A stretch of 64,000 nucleotides of DNA from Candidatus Eremiobacterota bacterium (GTDB lineage Bacteria > Vulcanimicrobiota > Vulcanimicrobiia > Vulcanimicrobiales > Vulcanimicrobiaceae). Both the position numbers and the translations under genes were made by a program. Shown here piece after piece: positions 10,897-20,202 of this stretch. The notes beneath the pieces were generated by a model, which was given only the letters and a program-made list of their open reading frames with translations, was not told where the DNA came from and did no database searches. The stretch covers positions 965,300 to 1,029,299 of the forward strand of contig JAFAYE010000001.1 in the NCBI GenBank assembly GCA_019240525.1, written 5' to 3'. Each line of letters starts with the position of its first letter. Within the stretch, counting starts at the first letter, position 1.

Positions 10897-11820
10897 CTAT
10901 GCGAGATTTGACGCGCTATCGGTGCTGACGACGCGATAGCGCCGGGGGAGCCGCCGGCCGGCAAACTCGGCCATTGCCGCGAGTTGGCGCATGAGTCGCT
11001 CGAACTGCGCGCAGTTGAGCGACTGCGCGCCATCCGAGAGCGCGTTTGCCGGATCCGGATGGACCTCGATCAGTAGTCCGTGTGCGCCCGCGGCAACGCT
11101 CGCCAAGGCAGTCGGAGGCACCAAACGCGCGATGCCGACGGCGTGCGAAGGATCGACGATCACCGGTAGATGGGTCATCTCCTCGAGCAACGGCACGACG
11201 GAAATGTCGAGCAGATTGCGCGTCGCCACATCGAACGAACGCACGCCGCGCTCGCAAAGAACGACGCTCTCGTTGCCGCCGACCAGAATGTATTCGGCGG
11301 CGAGTAACCATTCTTGGACCGTTGCCGAAAGCCCACGCTTGAGCAGGACCGGTATCCGCATCGCACCGACCTCGCGCAGCAGCGAAAAGTTTTGCATGTT
11401 GCGCGCGCCGATTTGCAGCATGTCGGCATAGGTCGCGACCTTCTCGACATCGCGTGGGTCCATGACCTCGGTCACGACGCCCAAACCATGCCGGTCGCCG
11501 GCATAACGCAGCATCTTGAGCGCCTCTTCGCCAAGGCCTTGAAACGAATAGGGCGACGTCCGCGGCTTATATGCGCCACCACGTAACACGTTTGCGCCCG
11601 CCGCGGCAACGGCGCGCGCCGCTTGTTCGAGTTGTTCGGCCGATTCAACGCCGCAGGGACCGGCGCAGATGGCGAGCTCGTCGCCGCCAAAGGTCGCGCC
11701 GCTACGTAACTTCACGACCGTTCGTTCGCCGCGAGCGTCGCGGCGAACGAGCCGGTACGATTGCGGTACGTTGACTCCGCGTTCCACCCGCCCGGCTTCG
11801 ACATGCCGACAGCGCTTCAT
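10897..11820 (-). CDS. aroF: 3-deoxy-7-phosphoheptulonate synthase (AroF/AroA-beta type)
   Basis: A 307-residue DAHP synthase, the entry enzyme of the shikimate pathway, condensing erythrose-4-phosphate with phosphoenolpyruvate. Landmarks: AGPCGVES, the substrate-binding KPRTSPYSFQG, LKRG, the DPSH motif with metal-ligand His, and EVHPDP. Residues 1-40 may be a short ferredoxin-like remnant. It is read divergently, 45 bases from the ketoacyl synthase gene that opens the putative cyclohexanecarboxyl-CoA cassette, a shikimate-consuming pathway. It could equally be the housekeeping copy. It converges with msrB at its 3' end. Confidence 0.93.
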   Translation of the reverse strand: MKRCRHVEAGRVERGVNVPQSYRLVRRDARGERTVVKLRSGATFGGDELAICAGPCGVESAEQLEQAARAVAAAGANVLRGGAYKPRTSPYSFQGLGEEALKMLRYAGDRHGLGVVTEVMDPRDVEKVATYADMLQIGARNMQNFSLLREVGAMRIPVLLKRGLSATVQEWLLAAEYILVGGNESVVLCERGVRSFDVATRNLLDISVVPLLEEMTHLPVIVDPSHAVGIARLVPPTALASVAAGAHGLLIEVHPDPANALSDGAQSLNCAQFERLMRQLAAMAEFAGRRLPRRYRVVSTDSASNLA

Positions 11821-11865: not shown

Positions 11866-13083
11866 ATGAGACCTTCAATGGAGCAGGTTGCCGTCACGGG
11901 ACTTGGAATCGTGTCGCCCCTCGGCAACACCACCGAGCTGTTTTGGCGCAATCTTCTCGACGGGAAACGCGCAATAGCGCCAATGGCCGCGGACGCGCGC
12001 GTTTCAGGAAACACTTTTTGGGCGGCGGTGGGTGATGATTTTCTCGACGAGAGTTTGTTGCCACGCGCCGCATTGCGCAATACCGATCGGTTCACACAAT
12101 ACGCAATGGCCGCAACGGCCGAGGCGCTCGATAGCGCGCGATTGACGCCGCCGCACGGCACCGCCGTCGTTCTCGGAAACACGATGGGCGGGTTCCCGCT
12201 CGTCGCCGAGTCACAGACGCGCTTTCTTGACGGAGCGCGCCAGGTCACTCCGAAACTGATGGCACTCGTCATTCCGAATATGGCGAGCGCCTCGATCGCG
12301 ATGCATTGGAAGCTTCACGGCCCGCAATTGGCGATCAGCACGGCCTGCGCCTCATCGCTCGATGCAATCGGTTTGGCCGCCGGCATGATCGAGCGCGGCG
12401 AGATCGAGGCCGCGATTACCGGTGGGAGCGAAACGCTGCTCAGCCCGCTCGTCTACGAAAGCCTCGTCCGCGCCGGCGCCCTCTCGCGCAACGACGACGT
12501 TACCTTGGCCTCCCGCCCCTTCGATGTCGATCGCGATGGTTTCGTAATGGGCGACGGTGCGGGCGTTCTCGTTCTCGAGCGCGTTGAGAGCGCGCAGGCG
12601 CGCGGCGTGCCAATTCTCGCTCGCATTCGCGGATACGGTTCGGTCGCCGATGCCTATCACATCACTTCGCCCGACCCGTCGGCGCGCTACGAAGTACGAG
12701 CGATGCGCGACGCCCTCGAACGATCCGGAGAGGCCGGCGATGAATGTCAGGTCGTTTACGCGCATGCAACCGGTACGATCGTGGGCGATGCGGCCGAGGC
12801 GAAAGCGATTGACGAGATTTACAGCGCCCGTCCCGCGATCGTCACGTCCATCAAGGGCCATCTGGGACACAGCATGGCAAGCTCCGGTGCGATGTGCGCG
12901 ATCGCGGGCATCAGAGGCATGCTCGAAGGCCGAATACCGCCGACGATCGGAACGCAGCGCGTCGATCGGCAAACGCGCTTCGATTTGGTGACCCGTGAAC
13001 CGCGCGTTCACCGCTATACGGCGATTCAAGTCAATGCTTTTGGCTTCGGCGGACAGAACGCGTCGCTGATTCTCTCCCGGTAA
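11866..13083 (+). CDS. Beta-ketoacyl-ACP synthase, FabF/KAS-II family
   Basis: A 405-residue condensing enzyme with the thiolase fold. The catalytic triad is visible: nucleophile Cys161 in STACASSLDAI, His in the HATGT segment and His in KGHLGHSMASS, as in elongating KAS I/II enzymes and polyketide ketosynthases rather than FabH-type initiators. It is the first gene of the five-gene cassette, 48 bases before the likely start of the next gene, with no ACP or acyltransferase beside it. It may extend an unusual starter or simply be an elongation KAS captured by the operon. An in-frame ATG at 11878 is an equally good start. Confidence 0.85.
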   Translation: MRPSMEQVAVTGLGIVSPLGNTTELFWRNLLDGKRAIAPMAADARVSGNTFWAAVGDDFLDESLLPRAALRNTDRFTQYAMAATAEALDSARLTPPHGTAVVLGNTMGGFPLVAESQTRFLDGARQVTPKLMALVIPNMASASIAMHWKLHGPQLAISTACASSLDAIGLAAGMIERGEIEAAITGGSETLLSPLVYESLVRAGALSRNDDVTLASRPFDVDRDGFVMGDGAGVLVLERVESAQARGVPILARIRGYGSVADAYHITSPDPSARYEVRAMRDALERSGEAGDECQVVYAHATGTIVGDAAEAKAIDEIYSARPAIVTSIKGHLGHSMASSGAMCAIAGIRGMLEGRIPPTIGTQRVDRQTRFDLVTREPRVHRYTAIQVNAFGFGGQNASLILSR

Positions 13084-13131: not shown

Positions 13132-16100
13132 GTGAATCTTCTTGTCAAGGGTACGAGCGGGCCGCTGGCCGGCGAGGTCGTCGTTCCGAATTCAAAATAT
13201 CACGCGCACCGCGCGCTGATCTTGGCCTCACTTGCGCCGGGAACCAGCCGGATTCGTGGACTATCGGACGCACGCCACGTCCAGTTCACAATGGACGTTC
13301 TGCGCGCGCTCGGTACGAAGATCGAGGTCGACGATCAAACGCTGCTCGTGACGGGCGGTCCGTACCATGTGAAGCGCAAAGTCGTTTCGGTCGGAAGTTC
13401 GGGCTCGACGCTCTATTTCATGATTGGTCTGGCCGCGCTGGCCGACGCACCGATCACGCTGACGGCACAAAAATACTTTCAGCGCCGGCCAGTCGGGCCA
13501 CTCCTTGAAGCGCTCGCGCAACTGGGCGTCCGATTCGAATCGTCGAACGGCTGCCCGCCGATCGCGATTACTCCAGGCAAACCGCGCGGCGGCCGCATCG
13601 TTATTCCAGGAACGCTCTCACAGTGGATTTCCGGCCTGCTTTTACTCGCTCCGTTTGCGCGTATGCGAACGGTCATCGAGGTCGAAGGCGAACTTAACGA
13701 ACGCCCCTACATCGAGCTGACCGCCCAGATGATGCGCGCCTTCGATCTACACGTACGAATCGCGCCGGACTGGCGACGCTTCGAAATCGAGCCGGGACAG
13801 CAAGCGCGTCCGGCGACGGTCGAGCTGCCCGCCGACATCGGCTCGGTCGCCTTCGGACTGGCGGTCACAGCGCTGCATCCTTCAAACGTGCTCTTTCGCG
13901 GCCTGCGGACGCTCCCTGGCGAGCTCCCCGATCACCCGGAAGCCGCGTTTATGGAGATCGTGCGCGAAATGGGTCTGCCGATGACGTACGATTCCGATGC
14001 GCGTGCGGTGCGAGTGAAACACGAGGGAATCCAACTTTGCGGGGTGCGGGTCGATTGTCGCGATATCCCCGACATGCTACCGATTTTGTCGACGCTCGGC
14101 ACGTTCGCCCGCGGCGAGACGATTTTAGAGAATATCCGTCACGTGCGCCTTAAGGAATCGGATCGCGTTGCCGCGATGCTGCAGCTCAATCGGATGGGCG
14201 GGCGACTCGAGCTACACGACGATCGCCTCATAGCGCACGGCGTCACGAAACTTTTCGGCACGCATCTCTCCTCGTTCAACGATCACCGCATCCTCATGTC
14301 GCTCGCGGTTGCGGCCTCGCGCGCGCAAGGGCAGAGCACGCTGACGTACCCGCACGCCTATCGCATCTCGTATCCGCGTTTCCTCGAAGCAATGCGCAGT
14401 ATCGGGGTTCCTATGTCGATCTCCAACGCTCCGGGCAACGGCCGGCGCCATTTGGTCGAACGCGCGATGCTCAAGCCCGATCCAGCCGCGCAACTCACGC
14501 TCGACGAGCTTCTCCGGCGTCACGCGAGCGAGATGCCGCTCGAGCTCGCGGTCGTCGAGACGCGGGACGGGAACGACGCAACCTTAACTTGGCAGGAGCT
14601 ACTCGATCGCGTGGAACGCACGGCAACGCTGCTCCTGCAGCTCGGCGTCCGCGCCGGGGAGTGCGTCGCCTACCAGCTTCCCAACTGCTTGGAGTTTGTG
14701 GTCGTTTCGCTTGCAACACTGCGCGTCGGGGGCGTCTGCTGCCCGCTCATGCCGATCTTTCGCGAGCGCGAGGTCGCGTTCTCGCTCCGCCGTTCCGGGG
14801 CGCGCGTGCTTATCGTCCCCGACGAAGCCCGCGGCCGACGCCACGCCGACGAGATCGCATCGCTGCTCAGTGAGGCGTCGATCTTCAGCGGTGAGCTTCC
14901 GCTGCGTTTGGAGCACGTGATCGTTTCCTCGAGCGGACGCCACTTAGGGCCGCTTCCGAGCGCCAACGATTACGATAGCTCGGTGCATTGGCTTCGATTG
15001 CAAGAAGCGCTGCAAGACGTCCGTGTTGATACAAAGGCGCTCGAGGCACGCCGGAGCAAACCCGATGCGGTCGCGCAGCTTCTCTTCACCTCGGGAACGT
15101 CCGGCGAGCCCAAAGGCGTGCTGCATCGCAACGACGTTTTGATGCGGGCTGCCGCAATGGAAGTCGAACACATCGGCCTCAACGCGAGCGATCGCATTTT
15201 CGTTCCGTCGCCGCTGGCTCATCAGACGGGCTTTCTGTACGGGATGTGGCTGGCGATTCTGATGGGCGTTCCGCAGATCGTCCAGCCCGTCTGGAATCCG
15301 GCGCGGGCGCTGCGCGCGCTCAACGATTGGGACGGCACCTTCGTACAGGCCGCTACGCCCTTCTTGGCCGACCTCGTCGCCGCCGTCGAGCAAGGCGAAC
15401 GTCCGCCGGCGGCGCTGCGAATCTTCGTGGCAACCGGCGCGGCGGTACCGCGCGGATTGGCCGAACGTGCAACGCGCATTTTGGGCACCGCGGTCTGCGG
15501 CGCGTGGGGAACGACCGAATCGTGTCTTGGGTCGCTCGCCGCCCCCAATGACGAAGCGGCAAAGGTATGGGGAACCGACGGACGCGCCTTGCGCGGGATT
15601 CATTTACGCATTACCGACTCGCAGGGGCGCGTGCTGCCCCCCGGCGAGGAAGGGCACTTCGAGGTAAAGTCGCCGACGATGTTCGAGGGTTACGTCGATC
15701 GTCCGGAATGGACCGCAGCGGCCTTTACCGCGGACGGCTGGTTTCGAACCGGCGATCTCGGCGTCATGGACGAGTCGGGCTACGTTCGCATCACGGGTCG
15801 CGTTCGCGACGTCATCAATCGCGGCGGTGAGAAAATTCCCGTCGCCGAAGTCGAGCAGCTCTTGAGCGATCACCCCGCCGTTGCAGAGATCGCGATCGTT
15901 GCGATGCCCGATCCGCGGTTGGGCGAGCGCGCTTGCGCCTTTGTGGTGCTGCGTGGTGGCGCGACGCTCGGCTTCGAACGAATGCAACATTACCTCGATG
16001 CCTGCCAGGTCGCCAAACAATACTGGCCCGAGCGGCTCGAGATCATCGGCGACCTTCCGCGCACTCCGTCGGGCAAGGTTCAAAAGTACGTACTACGCGA

Positions 16101-16152
16101 GCGCGCGCGGACGTTGCGGCCGCACGAACGCGTCAAGGAATCGATCTCGTGA
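13132..16152 (+). CDS. EPSP-synthase-like domain fused to CoA ligase; probable shikimate-activating enzyme
   Basis: A 1006-residue fusion. Residues 1-435 have the EPSP synthase (AroA) fold: SKYHAHRAL at 21-29, RRPVGPL, LSQWISGLLL, RLKESDR and FNDHR. Residues equivalent to E. coli Lys22, Arg27, Asp313, Glu341, Arg344 and Arg386 are kept, but Arg100 is Tyr95, Ser23 is Tyr and Lys411 is Ile, so the phosphoenolpyruvate site looks altered. Residues about 470-1000 are an AMP-forming acyl-CoA synthetase: TSGTSGEPKGVL, WGTTES, GWFRTGDLG and the C-terminal catalytic Lys in PSGKVQKYVL. The inferred job is activation of shikimate or a derivative to a CoA thioester with an EPSP-like elimination. GTG 13132 has a GAGG site upstream. 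The stop overlaps the next gene. Confidence 0.85.
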   Translation: MNLLVKGTSGPLAGEVVVPNSKYHAHRALILASLAPGTSRIRGLSDARHVQFTMDVLRALGTKIEVDDQTLLVTGGPYHVKRKVVSVGSSGSTLYFMIGLAALADAPITLTAQKYFQRRPVGPLLEALAQLGVRFESSNGCPPIAITPGKPRGGRIVIPGTLSQWISGLLLLAPFARMRTVIEVEGELNERPYIELTAQMMRAFDLHVRIAPDWRRFEIEPGQQARPATVELPADIGSVAFGLAVTALHPSNVLFRGLRTLPGELPDHPEAAFMEIVREMGLPMTYDSDARAVRVKHEGIQLCGVRVDCRDIPDMLPILSTLGTFARGETILENIRHVRLKESDRVAAMLQLNRMGGRLELHDDRLIAHGVTKLFGTHLSSFNDHRILMSLAVAASRAQGQSTLTYPHAYRISYPRFLEAMRSIGVPMSISNAPGNGRRHLVERAMLKPDPAAQLTLDELLRRHASEMPLELAVVETRDGNDATLTWQELLDRVERTATLLLQLGVRAGECVAYQLPNCLEFVVVSLATLRVGGVCCPLMPIFREREVAFSLRRSGARVLIVPDEARGRRHADEIASLLSEASIFSGELPLRLEHVIVSSSGRHLGPLPSANDYDSSVHWLRLQEALQDVRVDTKALEARRSKPDAVAQLLFTSGTSGEPKGVLHRNDVLMRAAAMEVEHIGLNASDRIFVPSPLAHQTGFLYGMWLAILMGVPQIVQPVWNPARALRALNDWDGTFVQAATPFLADLVAAVEQGERPPAALRIFVATGAAVPRGLAERATRILGTAVCGAWGTTESCLGSLAAPNDEAAKVWGTDGRALRGIHLRITDSQGRVLPPGEEGHFEVKSPTMFEGYVDRPEWTAAAFTADGWFRTGDLGVMDESGYVRITGRVRDVINRGGEKIPVAEVEQLLSDHPAVAEIAIVAMPDPRLGERACAFVVLRGGATLGFERMQHYLDACQVAKQYWPERLEIIGDLPRTPSGKVQKYVLRERARTLRPHERVKESIS

Positions 16153-17327
16153 AGCAACTCGATCGCGCCGATCTTGCAGGGGACCAGGCCGATTCCGACT
16201 TCGCCCGACTCAAAGATGAGATCGCGGCTTACGTGGCCGGCCCGGCCGAGGAGTGGGCGCTGCGCATTGAAAGGGAACGTCGCGTTCCGCCCGAGCTATG
16301 GGAGGAACTGCGAGCGCGCGGTTATCTTTCGCTCGCCGCGCCGGTTGCCTATGGAGGGCGTGGAGTACCATTCGTTCGATATCTCGAGCTGATCGAGCTT
16401 TTCTCGATGTCGCACGCGTCGATCCGGATGATCGTGCATGTTGTCAATGGGACGTGGCGCGCGATGGATCGTTTTGCCGGCGAGGACCAGCGTCGCAAGT
16501 TCGTCATCCCCTCCGTCCGCGGCGAAATGAAGATCGCATTCACGTTGACGGAACCGACCGCGGGCACCGGTGCCGATCTGCGCTGCAGCGTCGTTCGCGA
16601 GGGCGATACGTATTATCTGAGCGGCGAAAAACATCTCATCACTTTTGGTACCATTTCCGACTATTGGCTGCTCTTCGCGCGGCTAGCTGGCACGCGCGGG
16701 GCCGACGGGACCCTCGCGCTGCTCGTCGATCGCCGCGCGCCGGGAGCGACGGTCGTCGAGATGGACGAATCGATGGGCGTGCGTGGCACGGATCATGCGC
16801 GGCTGCACTTCGACCGTACCCCCGTTCCGGTCGCGCAGCGGCTCGGCGAGGAGGGACAAGGTTTGGAAGTCGCACTCGGTGGTTTTTTAGTGCCGAGCCG
16901 AATCTCGGTGGCAATGAGCTGCGTCGGATTGGCCAGGCGCGCTCACGAACTCGCGATCGAGTACGCACGCAAGCGCGAAACGTTCGGAAAGAAGCTTGAG
17001 GAACGTCAGGCGATTCGCTTCATGATCGCCGAGAACGCGACCGACATCGAAGCGGCCCGGCAGCTCGTTTTGCATGCCGCGAACGCGTGGGAAACTCAAA
17101 GCCCGCAGGCACCGATGCTCTCCTCGATGTCTAAGCTCCAGGCGGTCGACATGCTCACGCGCGTTACCGACAAGGCCCTGCAGATTCACGGCGGCATCGG
17201 TTTTTGGCAGCCAAACGCAATCGAGCGCGTCTACCGCGACGCGCGGGCGCAGCGATTCGAAGAGGGCACGAACGAAATACAAAAGACGGTCATTGCCCGC
17301 GAGCTGCTCGGCGGAGGGCGCGCATGA
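16149..17327 (+). CDS. Acyl-CoA dehydrogenase family flavoprotein
   Basis: A 392-residue FAD enzyme with the standard three-part acyl-CoA dehydrogenase fold. Seen: [13 protein letters not shown] (substrate and flavin), [21 protein letters not shown] and the catalytic base Glu at about residue 372 in FEEGTNEIQ. It oxidises an acyl-CoA at the alpha-beta bond, or in this setting works on a cyclic acyl-CoA. The GTG start overlaps the stop of the fusion gene (GTGA), so these are co-translated. In the ansatrienin-type cyclohexanecarboxyl-CoA route an acyl-CoA dehydrogenase handles a ring intermediate; that role here is inferred from context. Confidence 0.9.
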
Positions 17328-18130
17328 GCCGCCGCTTCGAAGACAAGGTTTCACTCATCACCGGCAGCTCACGCGGGATCGGCCGCGCTTTGGCCCTCAC
17401 CTTGGCGCGCGAGGGAGCGTCGGTCGTCGTTAATTACGTGCGCAACGCCGATCTTGCGGCCGACGCCGTGCGGGAGATCGAGTCGCTTGGCTCGCGTGCG
17501 ATCGCGGTTCAGGCGAACATGGAGGCGGTTGAGGAGATCGACGTGCTTTTCGATCGCGTCGCCGCCGAGTTCGGGCGGCTCGATCATTTCGTCTCCAACG
17601 CCGCGGCGAGTTCGTTCAAAAAGATCGTCGATCTTAAAGCCAACAACCTCGATCGCTCGTTCGATTTGAACGTTCGCGCATTCGTGCTTGGAGCGCAGCG
17701 GGCAGTGAAGTTGATGACCGGCGGCGGCCGTATCGCCGTGCTCTCGAGTTATGGGAGCGTCCGCGCGTACCCGACCTACGCGAACCTCGGATCGAACAAA
17801 GCTGCCGTCGAGGCTTTCGTGCGTTATATGGCGGTCGAGTTCGCTCCGTACGGCATCAACGTGAATGCCATCAACGGTGGTTTGATCGATACGGAATCGT
17901 GCGCGTACTTTTACGAACGCGTGCCGGGAATGGCGGCAATGGAGTCGGTGCTTTCGAAGGTGCCCAAAGGGCGAATGGGGACCCCGCAGGAGGTCGCCGA
18001 CACGATCGCCTTTCTTCTCGCCCCGGAATCCGAATACATCACCGGTCAAACGATCGCGGTCGACGGAGGCCTGAGCGTGATCGCGCCGCCGTTTTACTCG
18101 GATACGTCGCCGCCCCTCTCGCTCACGTAG
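17324..18130 (+). CDS. SDR-family enoyl reductase, FabL-like (ChcA candidate)
   Basis: A 268-residue short-chain dehydrogenase/reductase. The nucleotide-binding TGSSRGIG is at residues 13-20. The catalytic spacing is Tyr152-x6-Lys159 (YANLGSNK), not the Tyr-x3-Lys of ordinary SDRs; Tyr-x6-Lys is the mark of FabL and FabI-type enoyl reductases, and the segment [19 protein letters not shown] continues the match with FabL. It should therefore reduce an enoyl thioester. In the cyclohexanecarboxyl-CoA pathway ChcA, also an SDR, reduces 1-cyclohexenylcarbonyl-CoA; this is the best candidate for that step. The ATG overlaps the stop of the dehydrogenase (ATGA). Confidence 0.85.
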
Positions 18131-18156: not shown

Positions 18157-20202
18157 ATGTTCGAATATGCAATGGCGCCCGGAGCGATCGGCGCTTTGCT
18201 TCTGCCCAATCGCATCGTCATGGGCTCGATGCATTTGGGTATCGAGCGCGACGCCGAGGCGTTGGCGGCCTTTTATTCGGAACGAGCGCGAGGTGGGGCC
18301 GGGCTGATCGTCACCGGCGGTTCCTCGGTCAATCGGGTCGGCGCCGGCGGGAGAAACTATAGCTTCATCAACGAATCGGACGGCGTTTGGCCGTTGCGCA
18401 AGGCGGCCATCGCCGTCCACGATGCCGGCGGTCGCATCGCCTTACAGCTTTTCCACGCCGGGCGTTACGCGTTGCAGTCGTCCTTCGGATTGACGCCCGT
18501 TGCGCCGTCAGCGGTACCGTCGCGCTTCTCGCCAACTCCGCCGCGCTCACTCGACGAAGCCGAAATCGAAAGTACGATTGAGGATTTCGCGCTCGGCGCC
18601 GCCCGAGCGCGCGAGTTCGGCTACGACGCCGTGGAGGTGATGGGGTCCGAAGGCTACCTCATCAACCAGTTCCTCTCGCCGCTCACGAATCGGCGCGACG
18701 ACGCCTGGGGCGGCGACCTCGAACGGCGCATGCGCTTTGCTCGCGCGGTCGTTCGTGCGATTCGACGCCGCGCCGGGCACGATTTTCCGGTGATCTTTCG
18801 CATGTCCGGCGCCGACTTGATGAGCGACTCAACGAGCGCGCAAGAAACGCTCGACTTCGCGCGCGTGCTGGCAGATGAGGGTGTCGATGCGCTCAATGTT
18901 GGAATCGGTTGGCACGAGTCATCGATACCGACCGTGCAGCATCTCGTGCCCAATGGTGTTTGGGTGCCGTATGCCGCCGCGATCAAGCGCGACGTTGGCG
19001 ATCTCCCGGTCATCGCCAGCAATCGCATGAACTCTCTCGCCGTGGCCGACGAAGTGCTCGCCGCTGGGAGCGTCGACTTTATCTCGATGGCGCGCCCGTT
19101 TCTTGCCGATTCGCAGATCGTCGCAAAAGCCGCTCGCGGGCAATCCCAGCTTATCAATACGTGCATCGCCTGCAATCAAGCGTGCATCGACCGCTCGCTA
19201 CTCGACGAACCGGTTTCGTGCATGGTCAATCCGCGCGCGGGCCGCGAGTTAGAGTTCGTTTCACCCTCTGTCACGCGCAAGGCGTCGGGCCGCTTTGCGG
19301 TCGTGGGAGGAGGTCCCGCCGGCATGGAGAGCGCCCGCGCGCTCGCGACGCTCGGCCATCGCGTGGAGCTCTTCGAAGCTCAATCTGAGCTGGGCGGTCA
19401 ATTTAGAATGGCTCGGCGCATTCCGGGCAAGCGCGATTTCGGTGAGACGATTCGCTACTTTACCAACGAACTCGCGCGCCTGCGCGTGGTCGTGCATCTC
19501 GACCGTGCGGTCGACGCCGCCGCACTGAGCGGATTCGACGGCATCGTGCTGGCCACCGGTGTCAACCCGCGAACTATTCGGCTGAGCGGCCACGACCTGC
19601 CGCACGTCGTTTCGTACGCCGACGTTCTGCTGCGCGATCGTGCGGTCGGCGAGCGGGTGGCAATCCTCGGCGCCGGCGGCATTGGCGTCGACGTTGCCCA
19701 CTATCTGAGTTTCGGTACAACGGAAAGCGACGAAGGCACGCGTTTTCTCTACGAGCATGGGTTAGCGACGGCGAACGACGGCGCAATCGTCGTGCGAGGA
19801 CGTAAACAAGTCGCCCTCATGCGCCGCGGCGCTACGATCGGCGAAGGAATTGGAAAGACAACGCGGTGGGCCGTGGTGCGCGCGCTACGCGCAGCCGGAG
19901 TCGAAACGTTACCGAACGTCGTTTACGAAGCGATCGTTGCGGGCGGAGTTCGCGTGCGCGCCGCCGACGGCTCGCAATGCACCATAGCGGCGGATACCGT
20001 CGTCGTTGCAGCGGGGCAGGAACGCAACGACGCGCTGCTCGAGCCCATTCGCACCCTGAACGTTCCCTTTCGCGTCGTCGGCGGTGCAAGGAACGCCGGC
20101 GAGCTCAACGCGGTGCGGGCCTTCGAAGAGGGCCTGCGGGCCGCGCATGAGCTCGCCGCAGGTTGGCGTTCAGCGCACGAGCGCCGAACCGCTGCCGGGT
20201 GA
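18157..20202 (+). CDS. 2,4-dienoyl-CoA reductase-like flavin/Fe-S oxidoreductase (FadH family)
   Basis: A 681-residue enzyme of the old-yellow-enzyme plus NAD(P)H-oxidoreductase type. The N-terminal half is a TIM barrel with FMN (LPNRIVMGSM, LQLFHAGR, GSEGYLINQFLSP). The linker carries four cysteines in CIACNQACIDR and the following VSCMVNPRAG for a 4Fe-4S cluster. The C-terminal half has an FAD dinucleotide fold (VVGGGPAGMES) and a second Rossmann motif (AILGAGGIGVD). FadH reduces conjugated dienoyl-CoAs; in this cassette a cyclic dienoyl-CoA derived from shikimate is a natural substrate. ATG 18157 lies 26 bases after the SDR stop and no strong ribosome site is seen. Its end overlaps the convergent lipoprotein gene by 33 bases. 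Confidence 0.9.
   Translation: MFEYAMAPGAIGALLLPNRIVMGSMHLGIERDAEALAAFYSERARGGAGLIVTGGSSVNRVGAGGRNYSFINESDGVWPLRKAAIAVHDAGGRIALQLFHAGRYALQSSFGLTPVAPSAVPSRFSPTPPRSLDEAEIESTIEDFALGAARAREFGYDAVEVMGSEGYLINQFLSPLTNRRDDAWGGDLERRMRFARAVVRAIRRRAGHDFPVIFRMSGADLMSDSTSAQETLDFARVLADEGVDALNVGIGWHESSIPTVQHLVPNGVWVPYAAAIKRDVGDLPVIASNRMNSLAVADEVLAAGSVDFISMARPFLADSQIVAKAARGQSQLINTCIACNQACIDRSLLDEPVSCMVNPRAGRELEFVSPSVTRKASGRFAVVGGGPAGMESARALATLGHRVELFEAQSELGGQFRMARRIPGKRDFGETIRYFTNELARLRVVVHLDRAVDAAALSGFDGIVLATGVNPRTIRLSGHDLPHVVSYADVLLRDRAVGERVAILGAGGIGVDVAHYLSFGTTESDEGTRFLYEHGLATANDGAIVVRGRKQVALMRRGATIGEGIGKTTRWAVVRALRAAGVETLPNVVYEAIVAGGVRVRAADGSQCTIAADTVVVAAGQERNDALLEPIRTLNVPFRVVGGARNAGELNAVRAFEEGLRAAHELAAGWRSAHERRTAAG

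What the first reader, a model, noticed from the sequence alone, without database searches (positions are those of the whole stretch)
13132..16152. EPSP-synthase fold fused to an acyl-CoA ligase, with PEP site residues replaced
EPSP synthase and CoA ligase domains in one chain is unusual. The EPSP half keeps residues equivalent to E. coli Lys22, Arg27, Asp313, Glu341, Arg344 and Arg386, but Arg100 is Tyr, Lys411 is Ile and Ser23 is Tyr; Arg100 and Lys411 are phosphoenolpyruvate-site residues in E. coli AroA (knowledge plus hand alignment). This suggests the fold was kept for shikimate binding or elimination, not normal EPSP formation.
Basis: partly seen in the sequence, partly recalled or inferred. 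Interest (0 to 1): 0.75.

Follow-up and report, generated by a model that had tools for sequence, protein, structure and literature searches.

The report
Shikimate-to-cyclohexane-ring operon in uncultured Eremiobacterota
An uncultured soil bacterium carries an operon, led by a fused 'EPSP-synthase-like + CoA-ligase' enzyme, that matches the genes Streptomyces uses to turn shikimate into a cyclohexane-ring building block; here it probably makes cyclohexyl-tipped membrane fatty acids rather than aromatic amino acids.

Summary
The fusion is real: one 1006-aa gene (GTG start, 13132-16152) with a full EPSP-synthase-fold domain and a full acyl-CoA ligase. It is not the housekeeping AroA, because a separate canonical aroA exists in the genome. 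The fusion, an acyl-CoA dehydrogenase, a FabL-like enoyl reductase (SDR) and a 2,4-dienoyl-CoA-reductase-like flavoenzyme form a tight operon. Homologous operons occur in Actinomycetota; in six Streptomyces they sit beside AHBA synthase, as expected for ansatrienin-type clusters, whose cyclohexanecarboxyl-CoA (CHC-CoA) unit comes from shikimate. I therefore assign the operon to CHC-CoA synthesis, a known pathway newly seen in Eremiobacterota. The residue argument is largely reversed: the PEP contacts (K22, G96, R124, Q171, R344, R386) are unchanged in 80/80 relatives, and K411 is V, I or T in 25 of 32 ordinary AroAs. What changed, identically in 80/80, is the shikimate-3-phosphate side (S23Y, S169L, S197E, plus D49H, N94S, R100Y), suggesting an unphosphorylated substrate. 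Whether the domain dehydrates shikimate directly or still uses PEP is open. No modular PKS was detected and a dedicated KAS heads the operon, so omega-cyclohexyl fatty acids are the likeliest product. No activity was measured.

The parts
13132..16152 (+). EPSP-synthase-like / acyl-CoA ligase fusion, 1006 aa, GTG start
   Evidence: found in 17 of 18 genus genomes searched (G053 copy frameshifted, some copies cut by contig ends), plus one other genus of the family and one genus of a second family
13132..14421 (+). EPSP-synthase-fold domain (about residues 1-430) with signature K22-Y23-x-x-H26-R27, H49, S89, Y95, L162-S163-Q164, N189-E190, D314, H337, K341-E342, R345, D384-H385-R386, I412
14488..16116 (+). 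Acyl-CoA ligase (ANL) domain, about residues 453-995; best NCBIfam hit TIGR03208 cyclohexanecarboxylate-CoA ligase, 481 bits, below its 792 cut-off
11866..13083 (+). FabF-like beta-ketoacyl synthase (KAS), divergent from the genome's main FabF
   Evidence: adjacent in the genus and in Gammaproteobacteria MAGs
16149..17327 (+). Acyl-CoA dehydrogenase family protein (AnsL-like by position), overlaps the fusion's stop by 4 bp
17324..18130 (+). SDR enoyl-thioester reductase (ChcA-like), Y-x6-K motif, nearest solved structure FabL (3oic); 4-bp overlap with the previous gene
18157..20202 (+). Old-yellow-enzyme / 2,4-dienoyl-CoA-reductase-like flavoprotein with C-x2-C-x3-C-x11-C motif
   Evidence: motif read directly from the translation
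10897..11820 (-). DAHP synthase (first enzyme of the shikimate pathway), divergently transcribed, 45 bp from the KAS start; the only PF00793 DAHP synthase in the genome

Best explanation
The gene is the entry enzyme of a shikimate-to-cyclohexanecarboxyl-CoA (CHC-CoA) operon. The EPSP-fold half binds unphosphorylated shikimate and removes its first hydroxyl (dehydration). The ligase half makes the CoA thioester of shikimate or of the dehydrated acid. The acyl-CoA dehydrogenase-type, OYE-type and FabL-like SDR enzymes then complete alternating dehydrations and reductions to CHC-CoA. In this organism CHC-CoA is most likely used as a fatty-acid starter, with the operon's own KAS, to give omega-cyclohexyl fatty acids. 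Shown by sequence: the domains, the operon, its conservation, the altered 3-phosphate site, the separate aroA, and the AHBA-cluster context in Streptomyces. Inferred: the substrate, the order of the first two steps, the chemistry of the EPSP half, and the end product.
For: Separate canonical aroA, also in the other fusion-bearing genomes sampled, G049, G050 and G031. The fusion operon with ACAD, SDR and OYE recurs in Actinomycetota, and in split form in Gammaproteobacteria MAGs. In S. rishiriensis, S. humidus, S. cinerochromogenes and three other Streptomyces it lies next to AHBA synthase (1b9h, E 1e-188) and a class II DAHP synthase. The ligase's best family is cyclohexanecarboxylate-CoA ligase. 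The SDR is nearest FabL and has the Y-x6-K enoyl-reductase motif. Fixed S23Y, S169L and S197E in 80/80 relatives point to loss of 3-phosphate binding. The family is a single clade on a 2.5-substitution branch, support 100. Arthrobacter and Cellulomonas operons that lack the SDR carry a 60-65% identical SDR elsewhere. Only two FabF-type KAS and no modular-PKS KS were detected in the genome. Literature: a CHC-CoA gene cassette enables doramectin production without CHC feeding (PMC4581413); CHC-CoA is the precursor of omega-cyclohexyl fatty acids in the asukamycin producer (PMC4147253).
Against: No enzyme was assayed. I could not fetch the S. collinus ans or phoslactomycin plm genes by name, so the link to them rests on gene content and AHBA context. 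Strict conservation of the PEP contacts is hard to explain if the EPSP half no longer uses PEP. The only cultured Eremiobacterota isolate I found reports iso-branched, not cyclohexyl, major fatty acids (PMC9758169); whether it carries the operon was not checked. The ligase and dehydrogenase score below NCBIfam cut-offs for the CHC enzymes.
Confidence: 0.74

Rival explanations
1. PEP-dependent version: the EPSP half still binds PEP and puts an enolpyruvyl group on a hydroxyl of unphosphorylated shikimate or shikimyl-CoA; the group then leaves as pyruvate, so PEP pays for the dehydration.
For: K22, G96, R124, Q171, R344 and R386, plus D313 and E341, are identical in 80/80 members and in 32/32 AroAs; the predicted model superposes on closed, S3P-bound AroA.
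Against: R100, D49 and N94, invariant or nearly so in AroA, are replaced; no enolpyruvyl intermediate is known to me in CHC biosynthesis; no lyase gene for pyruvate removal was seen in the operon.
Confidence: 0.2
2. Housekeeping or duplicate EPSP synthase that happens to be fused to a ligase.
For: TIGR01356 score of 300.6 exceeds its cut-off of 287.25; catalytic K22, D313 and E341 are kept.
Against: Separate canonical aroA in the same genome; fixed substitutions at the S3P phosphate site; constant linkage to acyl-CoA redox genes across phyla.
Confidence: 0.04
3. Catabolic operon: activation and oxidation of cyclohexanecarboxylate or shikimate for growth (like the ali/bad pathway).
For: Weak hits to cyclohexanecarboxylate-CoA ligase and cyclohexanecarboxyl-CoA dehydrogenase models.
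Against: Scores far below those cut-offs (481 of 792; 142 of 575); an EPSP-fold domain has no role in that route; linkage to AHBA antibiotic clusters, KAS genes and DAHP synthase points to synthesis.
Confidence: 0.06
4. The operon makes CHC-CoA or a partly reduced relative that starts a small unknown secondary metabolite rather than membrane fatty acids.
For: A dedicated KAS, not FabH, is in the operon; in Streptomyces the pathway serves polyketides.
Against: No modular-PKS KS was detected in the genome; the operon is kept across the whole genus, unlike typical secondary metabolism.
Confidence: 0.2

Closest known systems
CHC-CoA gene set of Streptomyces (ansJKLM-chcA of ansatrienin, plm genes of phoslactomycin; Cropp et al. 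2000)
   Same: EPSP homologue, acyl-CoA ligase, ACAD, OYE-type oxidoreductase and SDR enoyl reductase; in six Streptomyces the same operon is next to AHBA synthase
   Different: Host is an uncultured Eremiobacterota with no PKS detected; a FabF-like KAS heads the operon; gene names of the S. collinus set are recalled, not compared by sequence
EPSP synthase AroA (TIGR01356, PDB 1G6S, 7TM5)
   Same: Fold (TM 0.86-0.89), catalytic K22, D313, E341, PEP contacts
   Different: S3P-phosphate and carboxylate residues S23, S169, S197 plus D49, N94, R100 replaced; about 26-28% identity; fused to a ligase
Cyclohexanecarboxylate-CoA ligase AliA type (TIGR03208)
   Same: Best-scoring ligase family
   Different: 481 bits against a cut-off of 792; fused downstream of an EPSP-fold domain
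FabL enoyl-ACP reductase / ChcA-type SDR
   Same: Y-x6-K motif, best PDB match 3oic
   Different: 266 bits against a cut-off of 328 for FabL; neighbours imply a CoA-thioester cyclohexenyl substrate

Membership tests
EPSP synthase (AroA) | EPSP-synthase fold | tested here: met
EPSP synthase (AroA) | PEP contacts K22, G96, R124, Q171, R344, R386 and catalytic D313, E341 | tested here: met
   80/80 identical; contact list recalled from 1G6S
EPSP synthase (AroA) | Shikimate-3-phosphate contacts S23, S169, S197 | tested here: not met
   Y, L, E in 80/80; canonical 32/32 S, 32/32 S, S or T
EPSP synthase (AroA) | Sole or housekeeping aroA of the genome | tested here: not met
   canonical aroA at G000:C1:117839-119068
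EPSP synthase (AroA) | EPSP formation from S3P and PEP | not testable with these tools
   needs enzyme assay
CHC-CoA biosynthesis operon | EPSP homologue + acyl-CoA ligase + ACAD + OYE reductase + SDR reductase clustered | tested here: met
CHC-CoA biosynthesis operon | Homologous operon inside a cluster for a CHC-containing product | tested here: inconclusive
   six Streptomyces loci with AHBA synthase fit ansatrienin-type clusters; PKS and product not checked
CHC-CoA biosynthesis operon | SDR reduces 1-cyclohexenylcarbonyl-CoA (ChcA activity) | not testable with these tools
   only enoyl-reductase motif and FabL similarity
CHC-CoA biosynthesis operon | ChcB delta3-delta2-enoyl-CoA isomerase elsewhere in the genome | not tested
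   unlinked in S. collinus (recalled)
Cyclohexanecarboxylate degradation (ali/bad) | AliA ligase and CHC-CoA dehydrogenase at family cut-offs | tested here: not met
   481 of 792 and 142 of 575 bits

The most novel reading that the evidence does not exclude
The EPSP-fold half is an enolpyruvyl transferase re-aimed at unphosphorylated shikimate (or shikimyl-CoA) that uses PEP to turn a hydroxyl into a pyruvate leaving group: a PEP-paid dehydration that opens the route from shikimate to saturated rings, fused to the CoA ligase that takes the product.
Probability: 0.2. Interest if true: 0.8.

Novelty: new member of a known kind. Interest (0 to 1): 0.5.

Why it matters
To my knowledge the enzyme that performs the first committed step from shikimate to cyclohexanecarboxylate has not been characterised biochemically. 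A fixed residue signature at the 3-phosphate site of an otherwise intact EPSP-synthase active site, fused to the CoA ligase, makes that step directly testable. The operon also predicts omega-cyclohexyl membrane lipids, known from acid- and heat-loving Alicyclobacillus, in Eremiobacterota, where nearest relatives come partly from permafrost peat. In addition, the gene scores above the NCBIfam aroA cut-off, so it can be mis-annotated as AroA.

Tried and rejected
2) Housekeeping aroA: rejected. 3) Chance fusion or assembly artefact: rejected; fused in 73 of 80 related loci, many from isolates. The six Gammaproteobacteria MAG loci have the EPSP-like gene unfused, five of them with the ligase gene next to it. 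4) Plasmid search for Streptomyces ans/plm-type operons: the hits inspected were ordinary or unrelated AroA homologues. 5) My first OYE query was read in the wrong frame (lysA too); repeated correctly for OYE. 6) Literature searches for ansJ/ansK/plmJK details and for published S3P contacts found no open-access primary paper, so those points are marked as recalled.

Full report
Observation. Translation of 13132-16152 gives a single 1006-residue protein starting with GTG. Relatives begin at the same residue with M. Pfam finds EPSP synthase at 9-421, AMP-binding at 462-854 and its C-terminal domain at 906-982. AlphaFold2 with 37 relatives gives mean pLDDT 85.5 and a weak linker at 435-443. The EPSP half alone gives 93.2 and pTM 0.91, and matches S3P-bound AroA from Klebsiella and E. 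coli at TM 0.86-0.89, far better than open AroA 1eps (TM 0.59-0.61). The ligase half matches aryl-acid adenylating enzymes.

Not the housekeeping enzyme. The genome has another full aroA at C1:117839-119068, above the TIGR01356 cut-off, and a weakly matching third homologue, probably murA. All 58 phylum genomes sampled have an aroA-family match. The fusion-bearing ones in that sample (G000, G049, G050, G031) have both genes.

Residues. I aligned 80 family members with 32 canonical AroAs. By standard knowledge of the E. coli ternary complex (1G6S, recalled), PEP is held by K22, G96, R124, Q171, R344, R386 and K411. S3P is held by K22, S23, R27, S169, S170, Q171, S197, D313, N336 and K340. The first six PEP residues are identical in 80/80 members. 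Position 411 is V, I or T in 25 of 32 canonical AroAs, so Ile there is not informative. The fixed changes are S23Y, S169L and S197E (S3P contacts) and D49H, N94S and R100Y (otherwise near-invariant AroA positions). N336 is His in 80/80 but is variable in AroA. A glutamate where the 3-phosphate's serine sits argues against a 3-phosphorylated substrate.

Distribution. In the phylum search the fusion occurs in 17 of 18 genomes of the same genus (including G053, where it is frameshifted, and copies cut by contig ends), in one other genus of the family and in one genus of another family. A scan of 84,980 species genomes gave 106 relatives, of which 80 were kept: Eremiobacterota, Streptomyces, Arthrobacter, Cellulomonas, Sinomonas, Solirubrobacterales, Acidothermus and others, plus Gammaproteobacteria MAGs. 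EPSP and ligase are one frame in 73 of 80. They are not fused in the six Gammaproteobacteria loci, and frame-broken in Microbacterium elymi. The EPSP domains form one clade (support 100, branch 2.53) apart from the canonical AroAs. The family is rare in Actinomycetes: one other genome among the 198 sampled around Arthrobacter citreus.

Operon. Downstream genes overlap by 4 bp: ACAD 16149-17327 and SDR 17324-18130, then OYE 18157-20202; a FabF-like KAS (11866-13083) lies upstream. ACAD is next to the fusion in 72 of 80 loci, SDR in 57 and OYE in 58; many absences are contig ends. Where Arthrobacter and Cellulomonas lack the SDR in the operon, a 60-65% identical SDR exists elsewhere beside a ligase and a FabF gene. 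The SDR is closest to FabL and carries Y-x6-K, the enoyl-reductase spacing. The OYE has a four-cysteine Fe-S motif, read directly from its translation.

Pathway. In six Streptomyces loci (L079, L087, L090, L099, L103, L116) the operon lies about 4-5 kb from the start of AHBA synthase (L090: PDB 1b9h, E 1e-188), with an aDAHP-type class II DAHP synthase between them; L090 also has a dehydroquinate dehydratase and a ROK kinase. AHBA plus a shikimate-derived CHC unit is the hallmark of ansatrienin/mycotrienin (recalled; S. rishiriensis is recalled as a mycotrienin producer). A CHC-CoA gene cassette is documented to support doramectin synthesis without CHC feeding (PMC4581413, citing Cropp et al. 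2000). CHC-CoA feeds both asukamycin and omega-cyclohexyl fatty acids (PMC4147253).

Fate here. A fabF search finds only the main FabF and the operon's KAS (plus one trivial 18-bit match), so no modular PKS was detected; one true FabH exists. The only PF00793 DAHP synthase of the genome is 45 bp away, divergent, and this neighbourhood is kept through the genus. I infer omega-cyclohexyl fatty acids. The first cultured Eremiobacterota has iso-branched fatty acids (PMC9758169), which shows that the phylum can use branched starters but does not test the prediction.

Mechanism. Most likely (about 0.55 given the pathway) the EPSP half dehydrates shikimate. The kept K22/D313/E341 group would act on the C5-C6 side, and the new E190 (E. 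coli 197) and H337 would assist loss of the 3-hydroxyl. The conserved R27 suggests a free carboxylate, so I favour dehydration before ligation. The PEP-dependent alternative remains open because the PEP pocket is intact. None of the chemistry has been shown.

Noticed in passing
L164:4410-8619, L165:4182-7944, L166:4557-8342; also L089:17398-20386 and similar Streptomyces loci: A FabF plus second acyl-CoA ligase pair travels with this pathway: next to the ChcA-like SDR in Arthrobacter/Cellulomonas, and directly after the fusion operon in several Streptomyces. It may mark a shared acyl product.
   Followed up: partly
L092 (9968-12979) and L118 (9968-12943): Orphan copies of the fusion in Streptomyces albus NRRL B-1811 and S. 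sulphureus without ACAD/SDR/OYE neighbours; S. albus also has a complete operon (L062).
   Followed up: no
window 10897-11820 (-): The only PF00793-type DAHP synthase of the genome is divergent from and 45 bp away from the operon, an arrangement kept across the genus.
   Followed up: partly
window 13132-16152: The fusion passes the NCBIfam aroA equivalog cut-off (300.6 of 287.25 bits), so automatic annotation may call it AroA.
   Followed up: yes
L047 (G053:C263) and L114: Fusion genes broken by frameshifts in one genus member and in Microbacterium elymi; sequencing error or pseudogene not resolved.
   Followed up: no
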